Of a stretch of DNA of 64,000 nucleotides, positions 1,439-60,799 are shown in pieces. This stretch comes from Pagrus major (taxonomy: Eukaryota; Chordata; Actinopteri; Spariformes; Sparidae): contig NC_133230.1 of NCBI RefSeq assembly GCF_040436345.1, forward strand, positions 19,292,197-19,356,196, in the 5' to 3' direction. The position numbers were made by a program, and so were the translations under genes. The notes under the pieces are model-generated. The model searched no databases, had not been told where the DNA came from, and saw only the letters and a program-made list of their open reading frames with translations. How positions within the stretch are numbered: position 1 is the first letter of the stretch; each line of letters begins with the position of its first letter.

Positions 1439-2176
1439 CTAACAGCTGACTTCATAAACACCCGTGTCTGGCTTGTTGGTTATCTCTGGACATGAACTAC
1501 ACGCAGGGCAGGCAGGGAGATCTGGGCAGGAGGGGCAGGTGGGGCATCTTGGTCGTTTGAAGCTAAACAGTAGGGCGCCGCCTCCCAGCACCTGTAAACA
1601 CGAACCCAACCATCCAAAGTAGAGGGAGCCAGCCGGATGCAGGCTGAGGTGGGGGAACTTGCTGTTGTTGATCCCTTGACTTGGGTCTGCCATCCCCAGT
1701 CTTCCAAGATTGTGGGTGTACACGCTAAGTGCAGTCAGGCTCAGCAGCCCGGACATCACCACCAGGAGTCCACCTGTAGCTGTCACACCTCTCAGAGGTA
1801 TATCTGTCCAACAGCGGACCCCGATACACGCCAGAACAATGCCGGTGCCACACAGGAACAAAGAGGTCAGAATCAAACCTTGTGCCAGGCGAACCCTCGG
1901 GTCTCTTTGGTACGGACCTGCCACGGGCCAGCACTGCTTCAGCTCTGAGTGCTCCACCTGCAGGCAGCTCTCCCAGAGTCCATCCGAGCGCAGCAGGAGC
2001 AGAGCCTCCACTGACCCCTGACCTTTCGTTCCAGACCGAAGGAGTGACCCCGGCCCTGCCACGCCCAGACGGGCCCGTCCCTCTCTCCACTGAGGGGTGA
2101 TGGCGGCGGTGAAGAGCAGGACCAATCCCAAGGGGGCAAAGACGATCCCCATCACCATGGAGGCTGGAGTGTGCAT
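1439..2176 (-). CDS. cldn23: Claudin-23-like tight-junction protein, single exon, 245 aa
   Basis: Claudins are four-pass membrane proteins that form the strands of tight junctions. The chosen start at 2176 (MHTPASMVMG) aligns with the start of CLDN23; an in-frame ATG 13 codons upstream (2215) is also possible. Visible segments: TM1 about 7-27, first extracellular loop with the claudin signature W30, GLW at 66-68, C71 and C82, TM2 about 98-118, TM3 about 130-152, TM4 about 183-206. N170-N-S is a possible glycosylation site in loop 2. Intronless structure fits CLDN23. Unusual points: the first loop has 37 residues between the two signature tryptophans, against 19 in human CLDN23, and the tail carries C211, C214, C217, C223, C226, C229 and C245, ending YEVSC rather than the YV PDZ ligand of most claudins. 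The family call is firm; the exact fish paralogue (cldn23a or a -like copy) is less so. Confidence 0.88.
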   Translation of the reverse strand: MHTPASMVMGIVFAPLGLVLLFTAAITPQWREGRARLGVAGPGSLLRSGTKGQGSVEALLLLRSDGLWESCLQVEHSELKQCWPVAGPYQRDPRVRLAQGLILTSLFLCGTGIVLACIGVRCWTDIPLRGVTATGGLLVVMSGLLSLTALSVYTHNLGRLGMADPSQGINNSKFPHLSLHPAGSLYFGWLGSCLQVLGGGALLFSFKRPRCPTCPSCPDLPACPACSSCPEITNKPDTGVYEVSC

Positions 2177-2215
2177 TTTAAGTGGTGCAAAACCTGATTC
2201 TTTCTCAGCTCTCAA

Positions 2216-2400
2216 GACATAGAACTATTTAGTTTTCCGCTAAAGTAAAACATACCAGCTGCACAGTACCTGTCCTCAATGAGAGTATTTTCCAAAAGAA
2301 AGACAACAGTGGCTGCTGCTGCTCCTCCTCCAGGCAGGGATGCTGCTTGTTTTTATCATATGCCGGTGTAGTGGGACCTCTCAGAGCAGAGTGGATCTAT
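2216..2400 (-). promoter_or_regulatory. Probable cldn23 5'UTR and core promoter
   Basis: Directly upstream of the cldn23 start. On the minus strand a TATA-like GATAAAAA (complement of about 2352-2360) would place transcription start near 2325, giving a leader of about 150 nt. A possible splice donor (CAG/GTACTG) lies near 2270, so a leader intron cannot be excluded. Confidence 0.3.
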
Positions 2401-26586: not shown

Positions 26587-26706
<120 letters not shown>

Positions 26707-34443: not shown

Positions 34444-35044
34444 TTGAGCTTACCTTCCTATTTAAATATTACATTAAACCGCAGCTCACTCGTGTCACCA
34501 CAGCTACTGCACTGTCACCACAGCTACTGCACTTTGCCATATTTCTTGCCAATTCCACATGTGGAATCAATGACTCATCAGTTCCTCATATGATTTATGA
34601 TTTTACCCGTGATGGAAATGTTAAAAAACTCTGCTGTCTTTTCAAACAGCAAGCTAACACCCTTCATTGACATGCCTTTGTTTTGTTGTGCAGCTCCAGT
34701 TATAGAAACACTGTTACTGACACACCTGTACCGTGTCCCTCCTTTCACTGCTGCAATGACACAAAGAGAAGAGAAAACATACCATTAGTGTTATTCAGGA
34801 TTACAATATGATGTCATGTCAGATAGTCATTATCACTCATTCCTTCTGGATCAGGAGGGGCAGCCCACATTCAGATTAATGTATTATATAAAGAAATAAC
34901 CTTTGTGTCACCTCATTTATTTATGTAGTCTGTTTGTGATGGATATGATGAATGAGTTAAAAAAAATAATAACTGGGCTTTGACATGTCCTAGATGTCTG
35001 GCTAATGTCACCAGGGCAATACTCATAATAAGAATTGAAATTCA

Positions 35045-38000
35045 TTTTAAATTTGGTAAGTCATAATTATGAGATTTAAAAGTTGAAATTATGAGATAAA
35101 AAGTCAACATTCATCTCATGATTTTGAAGTTTTATCTCACAATTTTGACATTTTATCTCATAATTGTGACATTTTATCTCATAATTGTGACATTTTATCT
35201 CATCATTGTGACAATTTATCTCACAATTTTGACATTTTATCTCATCATTGTGACATTTTATCTCATCATTGTGACAATTTATCTCATAATTGTGACAATT
35301 TAACTCATAATTTTGATATTTTATCTCATCATTGTGACATTTTATCTCATCATTGTGACAGTTTATCTCATCATTGTGACAATTTATCTCACAATTGTGA
35401 CATTTTATCTCATCATTGTGACATTTTATCTCATCATTGTGACATTTTATCTGACAATTGTGACATTTTATCTCATCATTGTGACAATTTAACTCATAAT
35501 TGTGAAATTTAACTCACAATTGTGACATTTTATCTCATCATTGTGACAATTTATCTCATAATTGTGAAATTTAACTCATAATTTTGAGATTTTATCTCAT
35601 CATTGTGAAATTTAACTCACAATTTTGAGATTTTATCTCATCAATGTGACAATTTATCTCACAATTTTGACATTTTATCTCATCATTGTGACATTTTATC
35701 TCATCATTGTGACATTTTCTCATCATTGTGACAATTTATCTCATCATTGTGACATTTTATCTCACAATTGACATTTTATTGATGAGATGGTCTCATCATT
35801 GTGACATTTTATCTCATCATTGTGACAATTTATCTCATAATTGTGACAGTTTATATCATCATTTTGACATTTTATCTCATCATTGTGACATTTTATCTCA
35901 TCATTTTGACATTTTATCTCATCATTGTGACAATTTATCTCACAATTGTGACATTTTATCTCATCATTGTGACATTTTATCTCATCATTGTGAAATTTAT
36001 CTCACAATTGTGACATTTTATCTCATCATTGTGACATTTTATCTCATCATTGTGACAATTTATCTCACAATTGTGACATTTTATCTCATCATTGTGACAT
36101 TTTATCTCATCATTGTGACAATTTATCTCACAATTGTGACATTTTATCTCATCATTGTGACATTTTATCTCATCATTGTGACAATTTATCTCACAATTGT
36201 GACATTTTATCTCATCATTGCGACAATTTATCTCATCATTGTGACAATTTATCTCACAATTGTGACATTTTATCTCATCATTGCGACAATTTATCTCACA
36301 ATTGTGACATTTTATCTCATCATTGCGACAATTTATCTCATCATTGTGACAATTTATCTCATAATTGTGACAATTTAACTCATAATTTTGATATTTTATC
36401 TCATCATTGTGACATTTTATCTCATCATTGTGACAGTTTATCTCATCATTGTGACAATTTATCTCACAATTGTGACATTTTATCTCATCATTGTGACATT
36501 TTATCTCATCATTGTGACATTTTATCTGACAATTGTGACATTTTATCTCATCATTGTGACAATTTAACTCATAATTGTGAAATTTAACTCACAATTGTGA
36601 CATTTTATCTCATCATTGTGACAATTTATCTCATAATTGTGAAATTTAACTCATAATTTTGAGATTTTATCTCATCATTGTGAAATTTAACTCACAATTT
36701 TGAGATTTTATCTCATCAATGTGACAATTTATCTCACAATTTTGACATTTTATCTCATCATTGTGACATTTTATCTCATCATTGTGACATTTTCTCATCA
36801 TTGTGACAATTTATCTCATCATTGTGACATTTTATCTCACAATTGACATTTTATTGATGAGATGGTCTCATCATTGTGACATTTTATCTCATCATTGTGA
36901 CAATTTATCTCATAATTGTGACAGTTTATATCATCATTTTGACATTTTATCTCATCATTGTGACATTTTATCTCATCATTTTGACATTTTATCTCATCAT
37001 TGTGACAATTTATCTCACAATTGTGACATTTTATCTCATCATTGTGACATTTTATCTCATCATTGTGAAATTTATCTCACAATTGTGACATTTTATCTCA
37101 TCATTGTGACATTTTATCTCATCATTGTGACAATTTATCTCACAATTGTGACATTTTATCTCATCATTGTGACATTTTATCTCATCATTGTGACAATTTA
37201 TCTCACAATTGTGACATTTTATCTCATCATTGTGACATTTTATCTCATCATTGTGACAATTTATCTCACAATTGTGACATTTTATCTCATCATTGTGACA
37301 TTTTATCTCATCATTGTGACAATTTATCTCACAATTGTGACATTTTATCTCATCATTGTGACATTTTATCTCATCATTGTGACAATTTATCTCACAATTG
37401 TGACATTTTATCTCATCATTGCGACAATTTATCTCATCATTGTGACAATTTATCTCACAATTGTGACATTTTATCTCATCATTGCGACAATTTATCTCAC
37501 AATTGTGACATTTTATCTCATCATTGCGACAATTTATCTCATCATTGTGACAATTTATCTCATAATTGTGACAATTTAACTCATAATTTTGATATTTTAT
37601 CTCATCATTGTGACATTTTATCTCATCATTGTGACAGTTTATCTCATCATTGTGACAATTTATCTCACAATTGTGACATTTTATCTCATCATTGTGACAT
37701 TTTATCTCATCATTGTGACATTTTATCTGACAATTGTGACATTTTATCTCATCATTGTGACAATTTAACTCATAATTGTGAAATTTAACTCACAATTGTG
37801 ACATTTTATCTCATCATTGTGACAATTTATCTCATAATTGTGAAATTTAACTCATAATTTTGAGATTTTATCTCATCATTGTGAAATTTAACTCACAATT
37901 TTGAGATTTTATCTCATCAATGTGACAATTTATCTCACAATTTTGACATTTTATCTCATCATTGTGACATTTTATCTCATCATTGTGACATTTTATCTCA

Positions 38001-39712
38001 TCATTGTGACATTTTCTCATCATTGTGACAATTTATCTCATCATTGTGACATTTTATCTCACAATTGACATTTTATTGATGAGATGGTCTCATCATTGTG
38101 ACATTTTATCTCATCATTGTGACAATTTATCTCATAATTGTGACAGTTTATATCATCATTTTGACATTTTATCTCATCATTGTGACATTTTATCTCATCA
38201 TTTTGACATTTTATCTCATCATTGTGACAATTTATCTCACAATTGTGACATTTTATCTCATCATTGTGACATTTTATCTCATCATTGTGAAATTTATCTC
38301 ACAATTGTGACATTTTATCTCATCATTGTGACATTTTATCTCATCATTGTGACAATTTATCTCACAATTGTGACATTTTATCTCATCATTGTGACATTTT
38401 ATCTCATCATTGTGACAATTTATCTCACAATTGTGACATTTTATCTCATCATTGTGACATTTTATCTCATCATTGTGACAATTTATCTCACAATTGTGAC
38501 ATTTTATCTCATCATTGCGACAATTTATCTCATCATTGTGACAATTTATCTCACAATTGTGACATTTTATCTCATCATTGCGACAATTTATCTCATCATT
38601 GTGACATTTTATCTCATAATTGTGACAGTTTATCTCATCATTTTGACATTTTATCTCATCATTGTGACATTTTATCTCATCATTGTGACAATTTATCTCA
38701 TAATTGTGACATTTTATCTCATCATTGTGACAATTTATCTCACAATTGTGACATTTTATCTCATCATTGTGACATTTTATCTCATCATTGTGAAATTTAT
38801 CTCACAATTGTGACATTTTATCTCATCATTGTGACATTTTATCTCATCATTGTGACATTTTATCTCATCATTGTGACAATTTATCTTACAATTGTGACAT
38901 TTTATCTCATCATTGTGACAATTCATCTCACAATTGTGACATTTTATCTCATCATTGTGACAATTTATCTCACAATTGTGACATTTTATCTCATCATTGT
39001 GACATTTTATCTCATCATTGTGACAATTTATCTCACAATTGTGACATTTTATCTCATCATTGCGACAATTTATCTCATCATTGTGACAATTTATCTCACA
39101 ATTGTGACATTTTATCTCATCATTGCGACAATTTATCTCATCATTGTGACATTTTATCTCATAATTGTGACAGTTTATCTCATCATTTTGACATTTTATC
39201 TCATAATTGTGACAGTTTATCTCATCATTTTGACATTTTATCTCATCATTGTGACAATCTATCTCACAATTGTGACATTTTATCTCATCATTGTGACATT
39301 TTATCTCATCATTGTGACATTTTATCTTACAATTGTGACATTTTATCTCATCATTGTGACATTTTATCTCATCATTGTGACATTTTATCTCACAATTGTG
39401 ACATTTTATCTCATCATTGTGACAATCTATCTCACAATTGTGACATTTTATCTCATCATTGTGACATTTTATCTCATCATTGTGACAATTTATCTCACAA
39501 TTGTGACATTTTATCTCATCATTGTGACAATTTATCTCACAATTGTGACATTTTAGCTCACAATTTTGAAATTTTATCTCAATTGTGACATTTTATCTCA
39601 TAATTGTGACATTTTATCTCATGATTGTGACTTTTAAACTCAATATCTTGCCTTTTCATCTCATAATTTTGCCTTTTTAACTCTTTTTCAACTTGTTTTT
39701 TAATCTCATAAT
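35045..39712. repeat. Hierarchical 21-bp minisatellite array, ~4.7 kb
   Basis: The monomer is TTTATCTCATCATTGTGACA plus one base (21 bp), with variants carrying ACAATTG, ATAATTG, ATTTTG or ATTGCG. Trimers of 63 bp (one ACAATTG unit plus two TCATTG units) repeat 3, 5 and 3 times in three successive blocks. Higher-order units start at 35283, 36358 and 37559 with lengths 1075 and 1201 bp for the first two; the third loses register near 38600. A further internal duplication is offset by 545 bp (38576 and 39121). Edge monomers are more diverged. Because 21 is a multiple of 3, long stop-free frames of FYLIIVT heptads appear on the plus strand; I do not consider them genes. Confidence 0.95.
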
Positions 39713-40047
39713 AATAAAGAATTGTTTTTAAATCAAGGCTTAAGTTGTCTTTTTTGTTTAACTGATGAAAATGGACTTCCATTCATTTTATTTCATTTTC
39801 TAATTAAACTGATCGACATCTTTGTCATAGGCTAAATGCTTTTGGCTGAATCCTAGCTCAATAGCACAACCTGGTGCCACCAAGTGGTACTGCAGGCTCA
39901 AATACAGCAAATAATACATTTTAAAAATCGCATTAATGTTAATTCGCGGATTCAGTAATATTGGAGAAAAACATTATAAACATATTTGCCTATTTGTTAT
40001 GTCATCTTTAATATCAACTGTGTAAAAGGAAAAGTACTTCCTGTCCG
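39713..40047. other. Spacer between minisatellite and nipal3 promoter
   Basis: About 335 bp of unique-looking sequence. CACCAAGTGGTACTGCAGG near 39877-39895 is a short non-repetitive island. I see no gene. Confidence 0.5.
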
Positions 40048-40147
40048 CGGTCACGTGACTGATTACGTCGTGCGTCAAGTCGCCGCATGAAAGCAGGTCG
40101 GTGGAGGAACTCGGAAGTGAGGCGCTCCTCGTCCCAAAGATGGTGTC
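40045..40147 (+). promoter_or_regulatory. nipal3 core promoter with E-box, ETS and YY1 motifs
   Basis: GTCACGTGAC at 40050-40059 is a perfect 10-bp palindrome and equals the CLEAR/E-box consensus used by TFEB/TFE3/MITF and USF. CGGAAGTG at 40112-40119 is a consensus ETS site. AAAGATGGTG at 40136-40145 resembles the YY1 element often placed at or just after the start of transcription. The stretch is CpG-rich compared with its surroundings and has no TATA box, so transcription start is probably near 40120-40140. Confidence 0.55.
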
Positions 40148-40260
40148 TTCCTCGACGTAGTGTCAGATAAACACACGAATTATGAGTGCTAAACGTATAA
40201 TCTGAAAGCGACGAGATGAAATATATAACATGTGAACGTGTGAGTAGTCCTGATAATTAA
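40140..40260 (+). promoter_or_regulatory. nipal3 leader with three upstream ORFs
   Basis: Three short complete frames precede the main start: 40140-40160 (MVSSST), 40182-40205 (MSAKRII) and 40216-40260 (14 codons). None overlaps the main ATG at 40286, so reinitiation would be possible. The first lies at the presumed transcription start and may not be in the mRNA. Confidence 0.45.
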
Positions 40261-40285
40261 CAAACTGCCTCTGAAGGCGGACAGT

Positions 40286-45355
<5,070 letters not shown>

Positions 45356-47480: not shown

Positions 47481-47629
47481 CAGCAAATAGTGTCTCATAA
47501 TCCAGTAATAACAAACACCGACAGCCTCCAAAATATCACAGCAGTGTGACTGAATAAACTCATTTTCGCTTCCTGCGTTTAGTCCACTTGAGATGGCGTG
47601 TTTCGGCCTCTTCCACTGACAGCTGTGAG
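47481..47629 (+). other. Putative noncoding first exon of rcan3
   Basis: GACAGCTGTGAG/GTGAGTGC gives a consensus donor at 47630-47631, downstream of the CCAAT-rich block. The exon has no in-frame start joining the coding exon. The 5' boundary is a guess. Confidence 0.35.
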
Positions 47630-49413
47630 GTGAGTGCACGCAACAATTCTCGCGTTTAAACCGATTAGAAAGGGAAATAAACACAGTAACTTCACCGGTG
47701 CGTGTGCAACCACGACTCAGTGCCGACTTCCGTTTAAATTCCCTCCTCGTTTGAGCTTAAAAACATTAATTTGACTCTGGAAAACAAACAACTTTGGAGA
47801 AAACGTGTTACTTTTGTGACAAACGCTCGTGCAGCGATTTTTGCACGAGCCCATTACGTAATTTCCAGGGGTTTCCTTCGAGGACACGCGAGGCAAATAT
47901 TGATGTCACACAAGCCTCCACGGTCATTTATTTATACTGTGGACATGTGATGTCATTGATGTCATTGCCTTCGCGTGCTCTGTTTGCACGTCACTCCTCA
48001 GAGGTTAAAGTGCAAGACACAGTTTTTGCTCTGTAATAAATAGTAAACCATGTTTCACCTTGATACTTGAGATCAGGTTGATTTTCAGCTGGTATTTTGA
48101 TTAAAAGATAGATGACAGACTCATTCCGGTTAAATGACGCTAGATGGCGCCCTGTCCTCAGTACTAAGTTGTTTATTTCACAGTAAGAGACCTTTTTGTT
48201 TTTTTTATGATCAATGTTTCCCACTTGTTGCTTCCTTTTCCGACTTGAAAATTGTTATGATCAAAATAAAAGTCACTGCTTTCAGCCTCTTAAACGTGAA
48301 TATTAATTGATTTTCTTAAGTGTCCGTGACAGAGAATTGAATATCTTTGTGTTTTGGACTGTAGGTTGGACAAAACTAGTGATTAACCTTGGACATGTTT
48401 CACTATTTTCTGACATTTAATGCAAACAGTTGATAAATCAATAAAATAATTGGCAGATGAATCCCAAAATGAAAATAATCATTACATGCAGCCCTATAAG
48501 AGATATCAATTACATAATCTATAGGTCTGTTGCACAAATGCTTTTTAAAGTGAGAGTAAGTGAGTGGGGCCCTGTCAAACTTTTAATCACAACTCTGATC
48601 AACACACGAGACCAAGATGAAGTCCTTCCCTAAATGTTTTTTATTTCACAAACAGAACATTTATCAAACGGGCAAATTAATAATCCATCCACATACATGT
48701 AACAGTTTAGAAACTTGCATGTCTTTGCAAACACATGCAGGTACAACTCGCTGTCGAGATACGTTGTGATGTTGTGAGTCTGTTCCCCTGTCAAATAATG
48801 TTGCCCTGTTTAGAATTGTGTTTCCTGCAACGCATCCAAATGGTGCAGGTTAAGGTCAGTAGATGACACACATATCCATGTGAAACAGACTTCAACACAA
48901 CTTTAAAATGGCTCAGGTAAATAAAGAATAAAATGTTATTTAACTACCATGTTTTATCAGTTCAAAAGCTTTTTTTTAAAGCTTTTTTTGAATTATTTAT
49001 TGTAAATGACCTCTCACGGCCGACCTGCAGTACCTTCACCGCCAACCAACTTTGAGAATACTGTTGCAAACACTTTGGTCTGCGAGCAGGTGGTACATTT
49101 TCTCAGTCAACAGTGATGCCCAGATAAAATATGATATAGATATTATGAAGAATTGCGACAAAAGAGAATATTTGAATCATTAATACGGACCTACAGATTG
49201 TTTCTCTCTTCTCCTGATCTTTAACTGTCACTCCTTCCTTCATGTTCTTTCTATCCCAGAACCTGTGTTGTCTCATCACTTAAACTTCAGTGCAACCCTG
49301 TAACCTTCACGCACCAGTGCCTCACCATCACCTCCTTCTTTCTTCACAAACATCCAGCCACTATATTCACCTTATGTCCCAACTTCCGGTCTCTTAACCT
49401 CCCCTCTCCCCAG
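47630..49413 (+). other. Putative rcan3 leader intron
   Basis: About 1.8 kb between the putative noncoding exon and the first coding exon. It contains a 9-bp perfect hairpin at 47825-47850 and a GGGCTGCAAC-type element fragment at 48300-48495. The acceptor is CTCTCCCCAG at 49413 or TCCCCAG at 49420. Confidence 0.35.
48300..48495. mobile_element. Partial GGGCTGCAAC-type element
   Basis: GAATATCTTTGTGTTTTGGA, then TTCTGACATTTAATGC and the end ATGAAAATAATCATTACATG before GCAGCCCT match the family of the 25039 copy. Confidence 0.6.
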
Positions 49414-49468
49414 TCCCCAGCCTCTGTGGTCCCTGAGGACTGTCAGCTGCCTCCTGAAAAGCTTCAAC

Positions 49469-49678
49469 ATGCTGCGAGGGGGCTCCAAGGCGTGGAGCAA
49501 TGGCTCGGAGGCCTACAGCAGCGACCCTGAGGAGGACGAGGAGGAGGAAGAGGACATGGTGTTTGGGGAGACTGATCAGGAGGGCATGGCGGAGGAGATG
49601 ATGGATCTGAGTGACCTCCCCACGGCGCTTTTTGCATGCAGCGTCCATGAAGCCGCGTTTGAAGAGGACGTACACAGG
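49469..49678 (+). CDS. rcan3: Calcipressin-3 (regulator of calcineurin 3), first coding exon, partial
   Basis: RCAN proteins bind calcineurin and modulate NFAT signalling. This 70-codon exon starts MLRGGSKAW, has an acidic run (about residues 21-29) and ends with [20 protein letters not shown], which matches the RCAN3 N-terminus (human MLRDTMKSW, acidic run, [20 protein letters not shown]). The donor AGG/GTGAG at 49679 is in phase 0, as expected before the RRM-like domain exon. The RRM, the FLISPP-type linker and the calcineurin-binding tail were not found in the remaining 14 kb, so they must lie beyond the window. The leucine-proline box shared with RCAN1 and RCAN2 is less conserved, which supports RCAN3. 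Synteny with nipal3 agrees. Confidence 0.9.
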
Positions 49679-52313
49679 GTGAGATGAGGCAAACTCACTT
49701 TCTGTGTCAAATTTTGGTGCTGTGTGTGTGTGGGTGCTTGTGTGTTGTTGGTGCATCAGTGTGTGTGCGTTTGAGTCATCCTGCTGGATGTGTCAGTGCA
49801 TCTGAAATTCAAAGCCCAGCAACGAGTAACAAGTGCATGATGTCATCCACAGCTTTTGCTCCTGTCTGTCGAAGTCTGTTCGTGGTCTTGAGCTGCACTG
49901 CTGATTGCTCACACACACACACTCACACACACACCTATACACATCCGGATGCTGTTATTTATTTGCCAGGGAACATGAATGCAGGGCAGTGGATTACAAA
50001 ATGACTTGCGCAGAAACGCGAGCCATACTCAGCATGTCATCTTCATACTCATTCTATCATTATGCAATATGTCATTCATGCCCACATCTGTTTTACAGAA
50101 GTGGCAACAGGCCTTAGACAAAAGCCCACATACACATATACATATAGTATGTTCATAGTTACGGTCAGGAACATAACCATCAGCCCTTGAGACTGGCAGT
50201 TTTAATGCCAATCCAGAAGAGGGCAGACTTTGTTTGTTGTGCGAGGGAGACGAGCTTGAGAACAAGGTTAATGTTTTTGTTTTGCTGTCCTGTCTACAGG
50301 GATGTAAGGGAGGTTGTTTTTCACTGAAATGTCCTCCATTTATGTTGATTTCTTTTGGCTGGAAGATAACGAAAACCTTTTCTTGAAGCAGATTTTGTTT
50401 GCCAAGCTTGTGAGAAAAGGCAGAATATTTTGTTTAAGATGACGAAGCTGCCAAATAAATGTACTTTTGATGTCGTGACTCATGAGGGATGTGCAGTTTG
50501 TGTGGATGACACGAAAATAAAAGAAATCAATCAATGAAGCAATCATACAGTACATTGTTGGCCTAGTGCTGTACATATACATACATCAAACACTGATTAA
50601 CATAATTATGCAACATGGCTATAGTTAGTATTCACTGCTGTCAAGCTAGCATGTTATTAAGACATTTTGGCTGCAGTTTCTTCTTCTTTTCTGTACCACT
50701 AGCTATCTTATAGCCTTACCAATGTATCTGCCTAGCCTTATGGAAGACAAAGTGGTCTGACTGCACAGGCAAAGCATTTGATTTATTGATTGCTGTTGGG
50801 ATATTATGAGATTTTCTACAAATAAAACCAAAAATGCTTTTAGAATAATTTTCCAACCTTATTATAACTTTAAGGCTCTCTTGGATGAGTAGAGTCTCTC
50901 TGTTATAGCTCCTCAGAGCAGGAATACTTTGTAATAGCTGGATCCTGTTTTCTGGAGGAGGATATAAAGAAAATACTTTTAATTTTCTGCCCCCTCTAAT
51001 CCAATTACGCTGTCCTACCATCCTTCCATCCTCCCAGCTGGCACCGTCCTCTGTCTCGTCTATCCATTCATCTCTCTCTAAAAGCTATCTGACCCATCTT
51101 CATAACATTTTTCTCTCCTGTTTCTGATCACTAGCTGGTTAACTTTCTTCTCCTTCTGCTGTTCTTTTAATATTCCCCTTCTGTCTCCCTCCTAAGCTGT
51201 CTTTATTTATCCTCTCTGTGTATGTAAATGCAAAGCAGAGAGGCTAAATGTGGCGCATACACAAAATCCCTTTAAACGAATCACTCCTGCTTTGTGCGGT
51301 TGCTGTTTGTACACCCATTGCTCCCAGCAGTGGAGTCGGCCCCCTTCCCCTCCTTTCGTTTTTTTTTTTCTCTTCCTATTTTGCCTCCCCACTTCATTAC
51401 GATTCACACTCCTGCTTTTAAGTGGAAATGCCACCCACGCACCCCTTCAGTCAGAGCGTGTCAATAGATTGTTCTCCATATGGCTCAATTAAATGAGCTT
51501 CACTAAAAATAGAACTTTTTGACATTTGTTTAAACTTTCAAAAACGAGGACAGGAAGGGATGAGGTATGAAACAAAAAAACAGGTTGCTTGTGATATTTT
51601 TCAAAGCACGAACAAGGACTTTATGAGGTTGTTTTTGGCTTGTAGCAGTGCTGTTTGATTCTCCCCACACACACATGCACTCACAGAGTCTTTAACGTAT
51701 TTTTGAATTGCTCAATTTTGAGAATTTCGCTAACTGCTCAAAACTTGACATCTCTAAACTCAGTGTCTGCATCCTCCCAGTGAAGAACAGGGACATGGCA
51801 ACCTACATTTTTGTGTCTTTGGGCTCTTGGCTCCCTCCCAACACCGACATTACCTTCTGTTTCTGTTCTCAAAGGCCTGCATGCAGGAGGTTGGGCTGTT
51901 TCTGTAATCACACTGTGCACTTTTAGAGAGGAAAGGAGGGAGGAGAGACAGACAGAGAGAGAGAGATAGATACATGTGCCCTCATATTTATAAGAAGCTC
52001 TTAGCAAGCTGTAAAAGCCTTTTTCCTTTCTTCTGCATTAGTGAAAAGAAAGTAAAACCTAGTGGCACACTTTCTTCTTTTATCTGCAGTATTTTGTTTC
52101 CCTGACCAGCTTTTAGGTAAAAATGGGGAGACGCCTTAAAAGTGCTTCGAGTTTCTTCAGGAAGTTCAGCTGGGGTCTGGTCAGATCAGCCCAAGTCTCT
52201 GCTGAAATGAATGGCTTTATTATTCATTTACTCATTAAAATTAATTAACTCTCATGATTAAAACAGGGCTGTGTCACTACACTCAGTGATCTCTCATAGA
52301 GCCCAATCAACAG

Positions 52314-60722: not shown

Positions 60723-60799
<77 letters not shown>
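60592..60799. repeat. GT and CA microsatellites in inverted arrangement
   Basis: (GT)24 at 60592-60639 and (CA)38 at 60724-60799, separated by 84 bp, are complementary when read inverted. A short GA tract follows at 60799-60808. Confidence 0.9.

What the first reader, a model, noticed from the sequence alone, without database searches (positions are those of the whole stretch)
35045..39712. Minisatellite with at least three nested levels of periodicity
The array is not a plain 21-bp tandem repeat. Monomers group into 63-bp trimers, and trimers plus marker monomers group into units starting at 35283, 36358 and 37559. The first two units are 1075 and 1201 bp; the difference of 126 bp is exactly two trimers (3 against 5 trimer copies). 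A one-monomer insertion occurs in the third unit near 37980, and another internal duplication has an offset of 545 bp. This layered structure is like centromeric higher-order repeats but sits in a short euchromatic interval between two ordinary genes. It suggests recent unequal exchange or replication-based expansion.
Basis: seen in the sequence. Interest (0 to 1): 0.7.

Follow-up and report, generated by a model that had tools for sequence, protein, structure and literature searches.

The report
Layered minisatellite grown from transposon arm
A 4.5-kb stack of 21-letter repeats beside a fish gene is really one end of an old jumping-gene remnant that has copied itself internally in layers, the latest of them very recently; it is a clear example of a known way in which new repeat DNA is born.

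Summary
The array (35113-39636, 219 parsed 21-bp monomers) has 63-bp trimers (runs of 3, 5, 3), three ~1.1-kb units starting at 35281/36356/37557, and older ~545-bp blocks. The three units differ only by whole-repeat copy number: 0 substitutions in 1012-1075 aligned bases. The host genome has 997 near-exact ancestral monomers. Fetched copies lie in short arrays, often facing inwards from shared inverted ends, TATGGAAGCCC...GGGCTTCCATA. A model of those ends that excludes the window finds the window's right end (E 5e-8). Two other copies have an integrase-core gene beside the same kind of end. Termini, partly supported 6-bp target duplications and transposase fit IS3EU DNA transposons. So the window holds a decayed, non-autonomous IS3EU-like insertion (about 35049-39783) whose one arm of subterminal repeats grew to ~219 copies. 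Other copies show their own, different higher-order periods, so layering is ordinary for this family. The array is predicted to be strongly curved and lies ~0.4 kb from a CpG-rich, promoter-like stretch of a NIPA-type gene; no function is shown. Known parallels: Drosophila Tetris, Xenopus MITE satellites.

The parts
35043..35048 (+). putative left target-site duplication CATTTT (inside the 10-bp shared string ATTCATTTTA 35040-35049)
   Evidence: exact match to 39784-39789, just outside the right end; 1.1% of 14-bp stretches of the window outside the array hold CATTTT; suggestive only
35049..39783 (.). whole decayed non-autonomous IS3EU-like element (inferred limits)
   Evidence: right end by end model, E 2.8e-8 and 5e-8; left limit from the direct repeat only
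35056..35111 (-). remnant left arm: about 2.5 inverted 21-bp monomers beginning GGTAAGTCATAATTATGAGAT; outer ~70 bp of the left terminal inverted repeat not found
35113..39636 (+). hyper-expanded right arm: 219 parsed monomers of ~21 bp
35113..35280 (+). left edge monomers, partly of ancestral type (AATTTTGAC, TAATTGTGAC)
35281..36355 (+). unit 1, 1075 bp, 3 trimer copies
36356..37556 (+). unit 2, 1201 bp, 5 trimer copies; 0 substitutions against unit 1
37557..38589 (+). unit 3, 1033 bp, 3 trimer copies, one extra monomer near 37974-38015, tail 63 bp shorter; 0 substitutions
35999..36187 (+). trimer run x3 (63 bp each)
37074..37388 (+). trimer run x5
38296..38484 (+). trimer run x3
38129..39635 (+). 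older ~545-bp blocks: 38129-38610, 38611-39155, 39156-39635 (99.6% and 95.6% ungapped identity between neighbours)
   Evidence: 272-bp exact match 38388/38933
35780..35798 (+). private marker: 8-bp inverted repeat around 3 bases (TGATGAGA-TGG-TCTCATCA), repeated at 36855 and 38077
   Evidence: absent from the 51 other fetched loci L009-L059
39637..39697 (+). diverged ancestral-type monomers at the right edge (e.g. 39658-39678, 1 mismatch to the ancestral monomer)
39698..39782 (-). right terminal inverted repeat of the element (66 of 83 aligned positions match the family model)
39784..39789 (+). putative right target-site duplication CATTTT
40001..40500 (.). CpG-rich stretch (CpG o/e 1.14), presumed promoter and first exon of the NIPA-type gene, of which an exon lies in the ORF 41244-41525
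   Evidence: PF05653 E 4e-14; that both belong to one gene is inferred

Best explanation
The array is one arm of an old non-autonomous IS3EU-like DNA transposon whose ends carry short tandem runs of a ~21-bp subterminal repeat. After insertion one arm grew locally by unequal exchange or slippage: first monomers, then ~545-bp blocks, then a 63-bp trimer, then a ~1.1-kb block copied twice, and last single trimer and monomer copy-number steps. The other arm stayed at 2.5 repeats and lost its outer end. SHOWN: the layers, zero substitutions between the ~1.1-kb units, the dispersed family with shared inverted ends, the right end in the window, an integrase-core gene beside the left end of two other copies, independent higher-order periods at other loci. 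INFERRED: the IS3EU name, the exact left limit, the order of the early steps, unequal exchange (rather than another copy process), and that the repeats began as transposase-binding sites two helical turns apart. NOT SHOWN: any present effect on the neighbouring gene.
For: Ancestral monomer TTTTTATCTCATAATTNTGAC with up to 1 mismatch: 348 forward and 649 reverse places in the host genome, backwards-read control 0 and 1. Several fetched copies show minus monomers, a centre and plus monomers between shared inverted ends; 28 ends were aligned, consensus TATGGAAGCCCATTTC.... The end model without the window's sequence hits 39782-39698 at E 2.8e-8, best hit in the reversed window E 0.56. Those 28 ends had been gathered with seven seeds, one of them the window's own end; gathered afresh without it, 26 ends from 19 loci give a model that hits 39781-39698 at E 5e-8, reversed control 0.61. 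Published IS3EU features: TA..TA termini and usually 6-bp duplications (PMC10045372, passages); TAYGG..CCRTA with 6-bp duplications in rust-fungus IS3EU (PMC12730594, section 13). Target-duplication test, with up to 3 bases of play at each side: 2 of 7 two-ended copies match 6/6 and 4 of 7 at least 5/6; of 42 mismatched pairs none reach 6/6 and 19% reach 5/6. Integrase core rva_4 (PF24764) next to the left end on contig 9 (E 2e-10; end model E 2.8e-7) and on contig 17 (E 3.2e-12); contig 17 has a facing right end ~19.0 kb away and AATTCA beside both ends. One-armed growth: 14 of 16 distinct clusters of 10 or more monomers have at least 90% of them in one orientation. Different higher-order periods of 80 bp or more in 6 of these 16 (227, 185, 143, 124, 82, 81 bp; 74-94% matches). 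Units 1-3: 0 substitutions, copy-number changes only.
Against: The left outer end is not found; the weak left hit (35054-35093, E 0.009) is no better than hits to ordinary monomers. The target duplication is AT-rich, and another 10-bp string is shared by the same two flanks. 3 of 7 two-ended copies show no good 6-bp duplication (best matches 3, 3 and 4). The link from rva_4 to IS3EU is my own knowledge; no IS3EU sequence was compared here, and the PDB search with the integrase ORF found nothing. A right end for the contig-9 copy was not found (the end model does not hit L042), and the middle of the contig-17 interval was not seen, so that it is one element is inferred. The fetched copies were picked by near-consensus monomers, so the family sample is biased. 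The number of element ends in the whole genome could not be counted (search unanswered).
Confidence: 0.85

Rival explanations
1. A free-standing minisatellite that arose de novo at this locus by slippage and unequal crossing over, unrelated to any mobile element.
For: Layering and homogeneity are typical of tandem arrays; three derived markers of the core are private to this locus (none in the 51 other fetched loci).
Against: The ancestral monomer is dispersed in hundreds of copies with shared inverted ends, one of which flanks this array; monomers at the right edge are close to the family's ancestral type.
Confidence: 0.05
2. Assembly artefact: the three units are one unit duplicated by the assembler or alleles laid in series.
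For: Zero substitutions in 1012-1075 aligned bases between units.
Against: The units differ by 126, 21 and 63 bp, so at least three versions would be needed; the assembly is chromosome-scale (785.9 Mb in 25 contigs) and the window and all loci fetched hold no N; a graded series 100%, 99.6%, 95.6% between blocks is expected of a real array.
Confidence: 0.08
3. The array is kept by selection as a regulatory or structural element of the NIPA-type gene (or the grainyhead-type gene), through curved DNA or dense GATA-type sites.
For: Array end lies ~0.4 kb from a CpG-rich, promoter-like stretch; AGATAA/TTATCT 41.1 per kb against 0.58 in the rest of the window; predicted end-to-end/contour ratio 0.52 against 0.935-0.954 in six flank stretches, and an A-tract phasing measure of 7.25 against 1.42-1.81.
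Against: Both features follow from the monomer itself: 11 of 11 other family arrays tested are also predicted to be curved; 49 of 500 column-permuted arrays reach the A-tract measure; no expression or conservation data.
Confidence: 0.1
4. A protein-coding heptad-repeat gene (21 bp = 7 codons; open frames up to 421 codons).
For: Long stop-free frames through the array, the longest 421 codons.
Against: Monomers without a stop in a frame give long open frames for free; 26 of 218 monomers have parsed lengths of 20, 19 or 14 bp, which break the frame; Pfam hits such as HALZ are low-complexity heptad matches.
Confidence: 0.01

Closest known systems
Tetris foldback transposon and its TIR-220 satellite (Drosophila virilis; PMC4079207, passages seen)
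   Same: Tandem repeats inside terminal inverted repeats of a DNA transposon act as seeds that expand into kb-size arrays, with unequal crossing over proposed.
   Different: 220-bp repeat, beta-heterochromatin, arrays of up to 66 copies; here a 21-bp repeat, a locus close to a presumed gene promoter, a different kind of transposon and a nested ~1.1-kb order.
Xstir satellite from the Xmix MITE (Xenopus laevis) and miDNA4 MITE satellite (X. tropicalis) (listed in PMC9659126, passages seen)
   Same: Vertebrate tandem repeats that ride on a MITE and expand.
   Different: Other transposon families; no higher-order units mentioned in the passages seen.
IS3EU superfamily DNA transposons (PMC10045372 passages; PMC12730594 section 13; counted in a table of four teleost genomes, PMC4746887, one passage)
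   Same: TA..TA / TAYGG..CCRTA termini, about 6-bp target duplications, integrase-like transposase.
   Different: The passages seen mention no 21-bp subterminal repeats; the window copy is a decayed non-autonomous one.
Alpha-satellite higher-order repeats (general knowledge; HOR passages in PMC8122249)
   Same: Blocks of diverged monomers amplified together, blocks nearly identical.
   Different: 21-bp monomer, one small array of 4.5 kb, no evidence of centromere function.
Chicken W-chromosome XhoI/EcoRI 21-bp curved repeats (recalled; search found no paper)
   Same: ~21-bp unit with phased A/T tracts and higher-order units of about 1 kb (recalled).
   Different: Large heterochromatic arrays (recalled); no relation tested.

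Membership tests
IS3EU DNA transposons | termini TA..TA (TAYGG..CCRTA) | tested here: met
   family consensus of 28 ends starts TATGGAAGCCC, with T at position 1 in 24 of 28 and A at position 2 in 19 of 28; the window's right end matches from model position 2, its outermost base being T where A is expected
IS3EU DNA transposons | target-site duplication, usually 6 bp | tested here: inconclusive
   2 of 7 two-ended copies 6/6, 4 of 7 at least 5/6 against 0% and 19% of 42 mismatched pairs; contig-17 ends both have AATTCA beside them; window CATTTT on both sides
IS3EU DNA transposons | DDE transposase of the IS3EU/GingerRoot clade | tested here: inconclusive
   rva_4 integrase core, PF24764, beside the left end of two other copies; no IS3EU reference sequence or tree was available
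IS3EU DNA transposons | both terminal inverted repeats present in the window copy | tested here: not met
   right end E 2.8e-8 / 5e-8; left outer ~70 bp not found: a truncated copy
Minisatellite / VNTR | tandem array of short units, 0.5-30 kb, in euchromatin | tested here: met
   21 bp, 4.5 kb, within ~0.4 kb of a CpG-rich, promoter-like stretch; chromatin state itself not tested
Minisatellite / VNTR | length differs between individuals | not testable with these tools
   one assembly, no reads
Higher-order repeat array | multi-monomer blocks far more alike than the monomers within them | tested here: met
   units 100% alike in aligned bases; core monomers differ from the consensus by 1.68 positions of 21 on average
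Foldback transposon | long terminal inverted repeats built of tandem subrepeats | tested here: inconclusive
   some clusters have inward-facing subrepeats in both arms, e.g. L012 5-/8+, L013 19-/2+; arms mostly unequal, and the outer ~70 bp are not built of subrepeats

The most novel reading that the evidence does not exclude
The 21-bp subterminal repeats are an ordered row of binding sites for the element's own integrase or its THAP-domain protein, set exactly two helical turns apart on intrinsically curved DNA. The same geometry makes one arm prone to runaway, layered expansion after the element dies, so that a dead transposon end keeps turning into fast-changing curved arrays, here beside a gene promoter.
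Probability: 0.15. Interest if true: 0.65.

Novelty: new member of a known kind. Interest (0 to 1): 0.42.

Why it matters
It gives a step-by-step record of a transposon end turning into a higher-order minisatellite in a vertebrate, with sister copies of many lengths in one genome (clusters from 3 to ~80 repeats by strict count, and 219 here). That makes the question of how tandem arrays and their higher-order units start directly testable, without a centromere. IS3EU is not among the sources in the review-table passages I saw, so it may be an unlisted source of vertebrate minisatellites.

Tried and rejected
Literature by sequence: twelve 14- to 16-base strings of the monomer, both strands, gave 0 papers. 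Viral and prokaryote collections: 0 exact matches to three patterns. Rfam on the window at gathering scores: 0. Pfam hits of one of the array's open frames (HALZ, E 2.3e-26, and 12 more) rejected as heptad low-complexity. PDB search with the rcan-like ORF and with the integrase ORF: nothing. Chicken W repeat papers: none in the library by those terms. Searches for IS3EU together with subterminal or tandem repeats in fish listed nothing that I judged relevant by title; I did not read those papers. Passages on Nothobranchius minisatellites (PMC2688266) describe centromeric 77-, 49- and 24-bp repeats and were not used. Target duplication read first as TA (Tc1-like): dropped when the two-ended copies favoured about 6 bp outside TATGG. 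Comparing the two halves of unit 1 (94.2%) was not used because unrelated stretches of the array are also very alike. One script hit its time limit with no output. In the count of 16 clusters I dropped repeat fetches of the same place (L023; L028, L029; L032-L034) and all clusters under 10 monomers.
Full report
OBSERVATION. The finding is accurate in nearly every number. TRF reports one array at 35113-39636 with periods 21, 42 and 63. A cyclic parse yields 219 monomers of 33 types. Three units start at 35281, 36356 and 37557 and are 1075, 1201 and (to where unit 3 leaves the pattern) 1033 bp long; pairwise alignment gives 1075, 1012 and 1012 matching bases and 0 substitutions in all three comparisons. 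The differences are gaps of 126 bp (two trimers), 21 bp (one monomer) and 63 bp (a missing tail in unit 3). Exact repeats of 964 and 800 bp run through them. Trimer runs are 3, 5 and 3, and monomer order is far from random: lags 52, 3 and 58 score 0.329, 0.278 and 0.267, with maxima of 0.180, 0.190 and 0.193 in 500 permutations. A further, older layer of ~545-bp blocks lies at the right: neighbours are 99.6% and 95.6% identical without gaps.

AGE. Zero substitutions over 1012 columns in three copies bounds their split, on a star tree, at 0.10-0.49 Myr for assumed rates of 1e-8 to 2e-9 per site and year (the rates are assumptions). Gene conversion would give the same picture. The right end of the element matches the family model at only 66 of 83 positions; 45 end hits of at least 60 aligned positions in the other loci, many of them used to build that model, average 0.80. 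So the insertion looks much older than the layering.

SOURCE. The window lies on contig 16 of a 785.9-Mb genome of 25 contigs; by its genes it is a vertebrate, and I take it for a teleost (inference). The ancestral monomer occurs at 997 places with at most one mismatch, control 1. In fetched loci (L009-L059: 51, some overlapping) the monomers form clusters of up to 80 by a strict count that listed only those of 3 or more, often minus-strand units on the left and plus-strand units on the right. Outside them lie shared inverted ends of about 70 bp before the first GGTAAGTCATAATTATGAGAT. A model of 28 ends without the window's sequence finds the window's right end at 39782-39698 (E 2.8e-8; best in the reversed window 0.56). 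Because the window's end had been one of the seven seeds with which those ends were gathered, I repeated the gathering without it: 26 ends from 19 loci, E 5e-8, control 0.61. The left outer end is not found, and another 10-bp string is also shared by the flanks, so the left limit is tentative.

SUPERFAMILY. On contig 9 and contig 17, copies with the same left end and 21-bp arms carry an integrase core (rva_4, PF24764; E 2e-10 and 3.2e-12). The contig-9 region also shows THAP and HECT-like pieces; whether they lie inside the element is not shown, since no right end was found there. On contig 17 a facing right end lies ~19.0 kb away and AATTCA stands beside both ends; the middle could not be fetched. 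Published IS3EU elements have TA..TA ends with usually 6-bp duplications (PMC10045372, passages) and, in rust fungi, TAYGG..CCRTA (PMC12730594, section 13). Of 7 two-ended copies, 2 have 6/6 and 4 at least 5/6 matching duplications, with up to 3 bases of play at each side; 3 do not. I therefore file the family as IS3EU-like with good but not complete support.

MECHANISM. One-armed growth is the rule in this sample: 14 of 16 distinct clusters of at least 10 monomers have 90% or more in one orientation, the exceptions being L012 (8 of 13) and L027 (13 of 15). TRF finds higher-order periods of 80 bp or more in 6 of the 16: 227, 185, 143, 124, 82 and 81 bp, with 74-94% matches; the other 10 show none. 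Hence layering arises anew at single loci, as expected if local unequal exchange or slippage copies blocks of varying size. Markers of the window's core (a hairpin-like 19-mer, a TTGCGA variant, the palindrome TCACAATTGTGA) occur in none of the 51 other fetched loci. The hairpin marker, an 8-bp inverted repeat round 3 bases, looks like a template switch (inference).

DNA SHAPE AND NEIGHBOURS. AA/TT steps have a strong 10.5-bp period. A wedge model with recalled parameters predicts an end-to-end/contour ratio of 0.52 for 126-bp stretches against 0.935-0.954 in six flank stretches and 0.92-0.95 in 20 base shuffles; 0 of 60 column-permuted arrays are as curved. A cruder A-tract measure agrees on the contrast with flanks (7.25 against 1.42-1.81), but 49 of 500 column-permuted arrays reach it. 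11 of 11 other family arrays tested are more curved than both their flanks. So curvature belongs to the monomer. To the right lies a CpG-rich stretch at 40001-40500 and a NIPA-type magnesium transporter exon; to the left are exons of a grainyhead-type gene on the minus strand (CP2 domain; GRHL chains in the PDB). The names nipal3, grhl3 and rcan3 are recalled, not tested. No effect on any gene is shown.

VERDICT. A true, well-described and unusually clean layered array, but of a known kind: a tandem repeat born inside the end of a DNA transposon, as in Tetris (PMC4079207, passages) and the Xenopus MITE satellites (PMC9659126, passages). What is new to me is the IS3EU source and the series of stages in one vertebrate genome; my searches for print on this listed none that I could recognise, in an open-access library only.

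Noticed in passing
L054 4869-8930 (contig 9) and L049 5064-5654 (contig 17): Copies of the same element family with an rva_4 integrase-core gene beside the left end; the contig-9 region also has a THAP piece and a HECT-like piece on the other strand.
   Followed up: partly
window 35780, 36855, 38077: 19-bp inverted-repeat marker in each unit that looks like a template-switch scar.
   Followed up: partly
window 35113-39636: AGATAA/TTATCT (GATA-factor core, recalled) 41.1 per kb and 39 perfect 12-bp palindromes TCACAATTGTGA; by-products of the monomer unless shown otherwise.
   Followed up: partly
window 1439-2224 minus: Claudin-family open frame of 261 codons (PF00822, E 4.9e-14).
   Followed up: no
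window 47501-48000: Second CpG-rich stretch (o/e 1.11), perhaps the promoter of an rcan3-like gene whose coding exon seems to be at 49304-49687 (name recalled; no Pfam or PDB match).
   Followed up: no
window 26588-26704 and 60724-60799: Long (CA)n microsatellites, 58.5 and 38 copies.
   Followed up: no
L052 5318-6270: Unrelated 164-bp tandem repeat, 5.8 copies, 95% matches.
   Followed up: no
L009 3224-3888; L035 1101-1218: Another dispersed tandem motif (TTATCTCGAGATCTCGAGAAAA and relatives) near copies of the element.
   Followed up: no
L046 3230-6057: A 2.8-kb array of the same family with ~135 copies by TRF and no higher-order period found, predicted even more curved than the window array (0.478).
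   Followed up: partly
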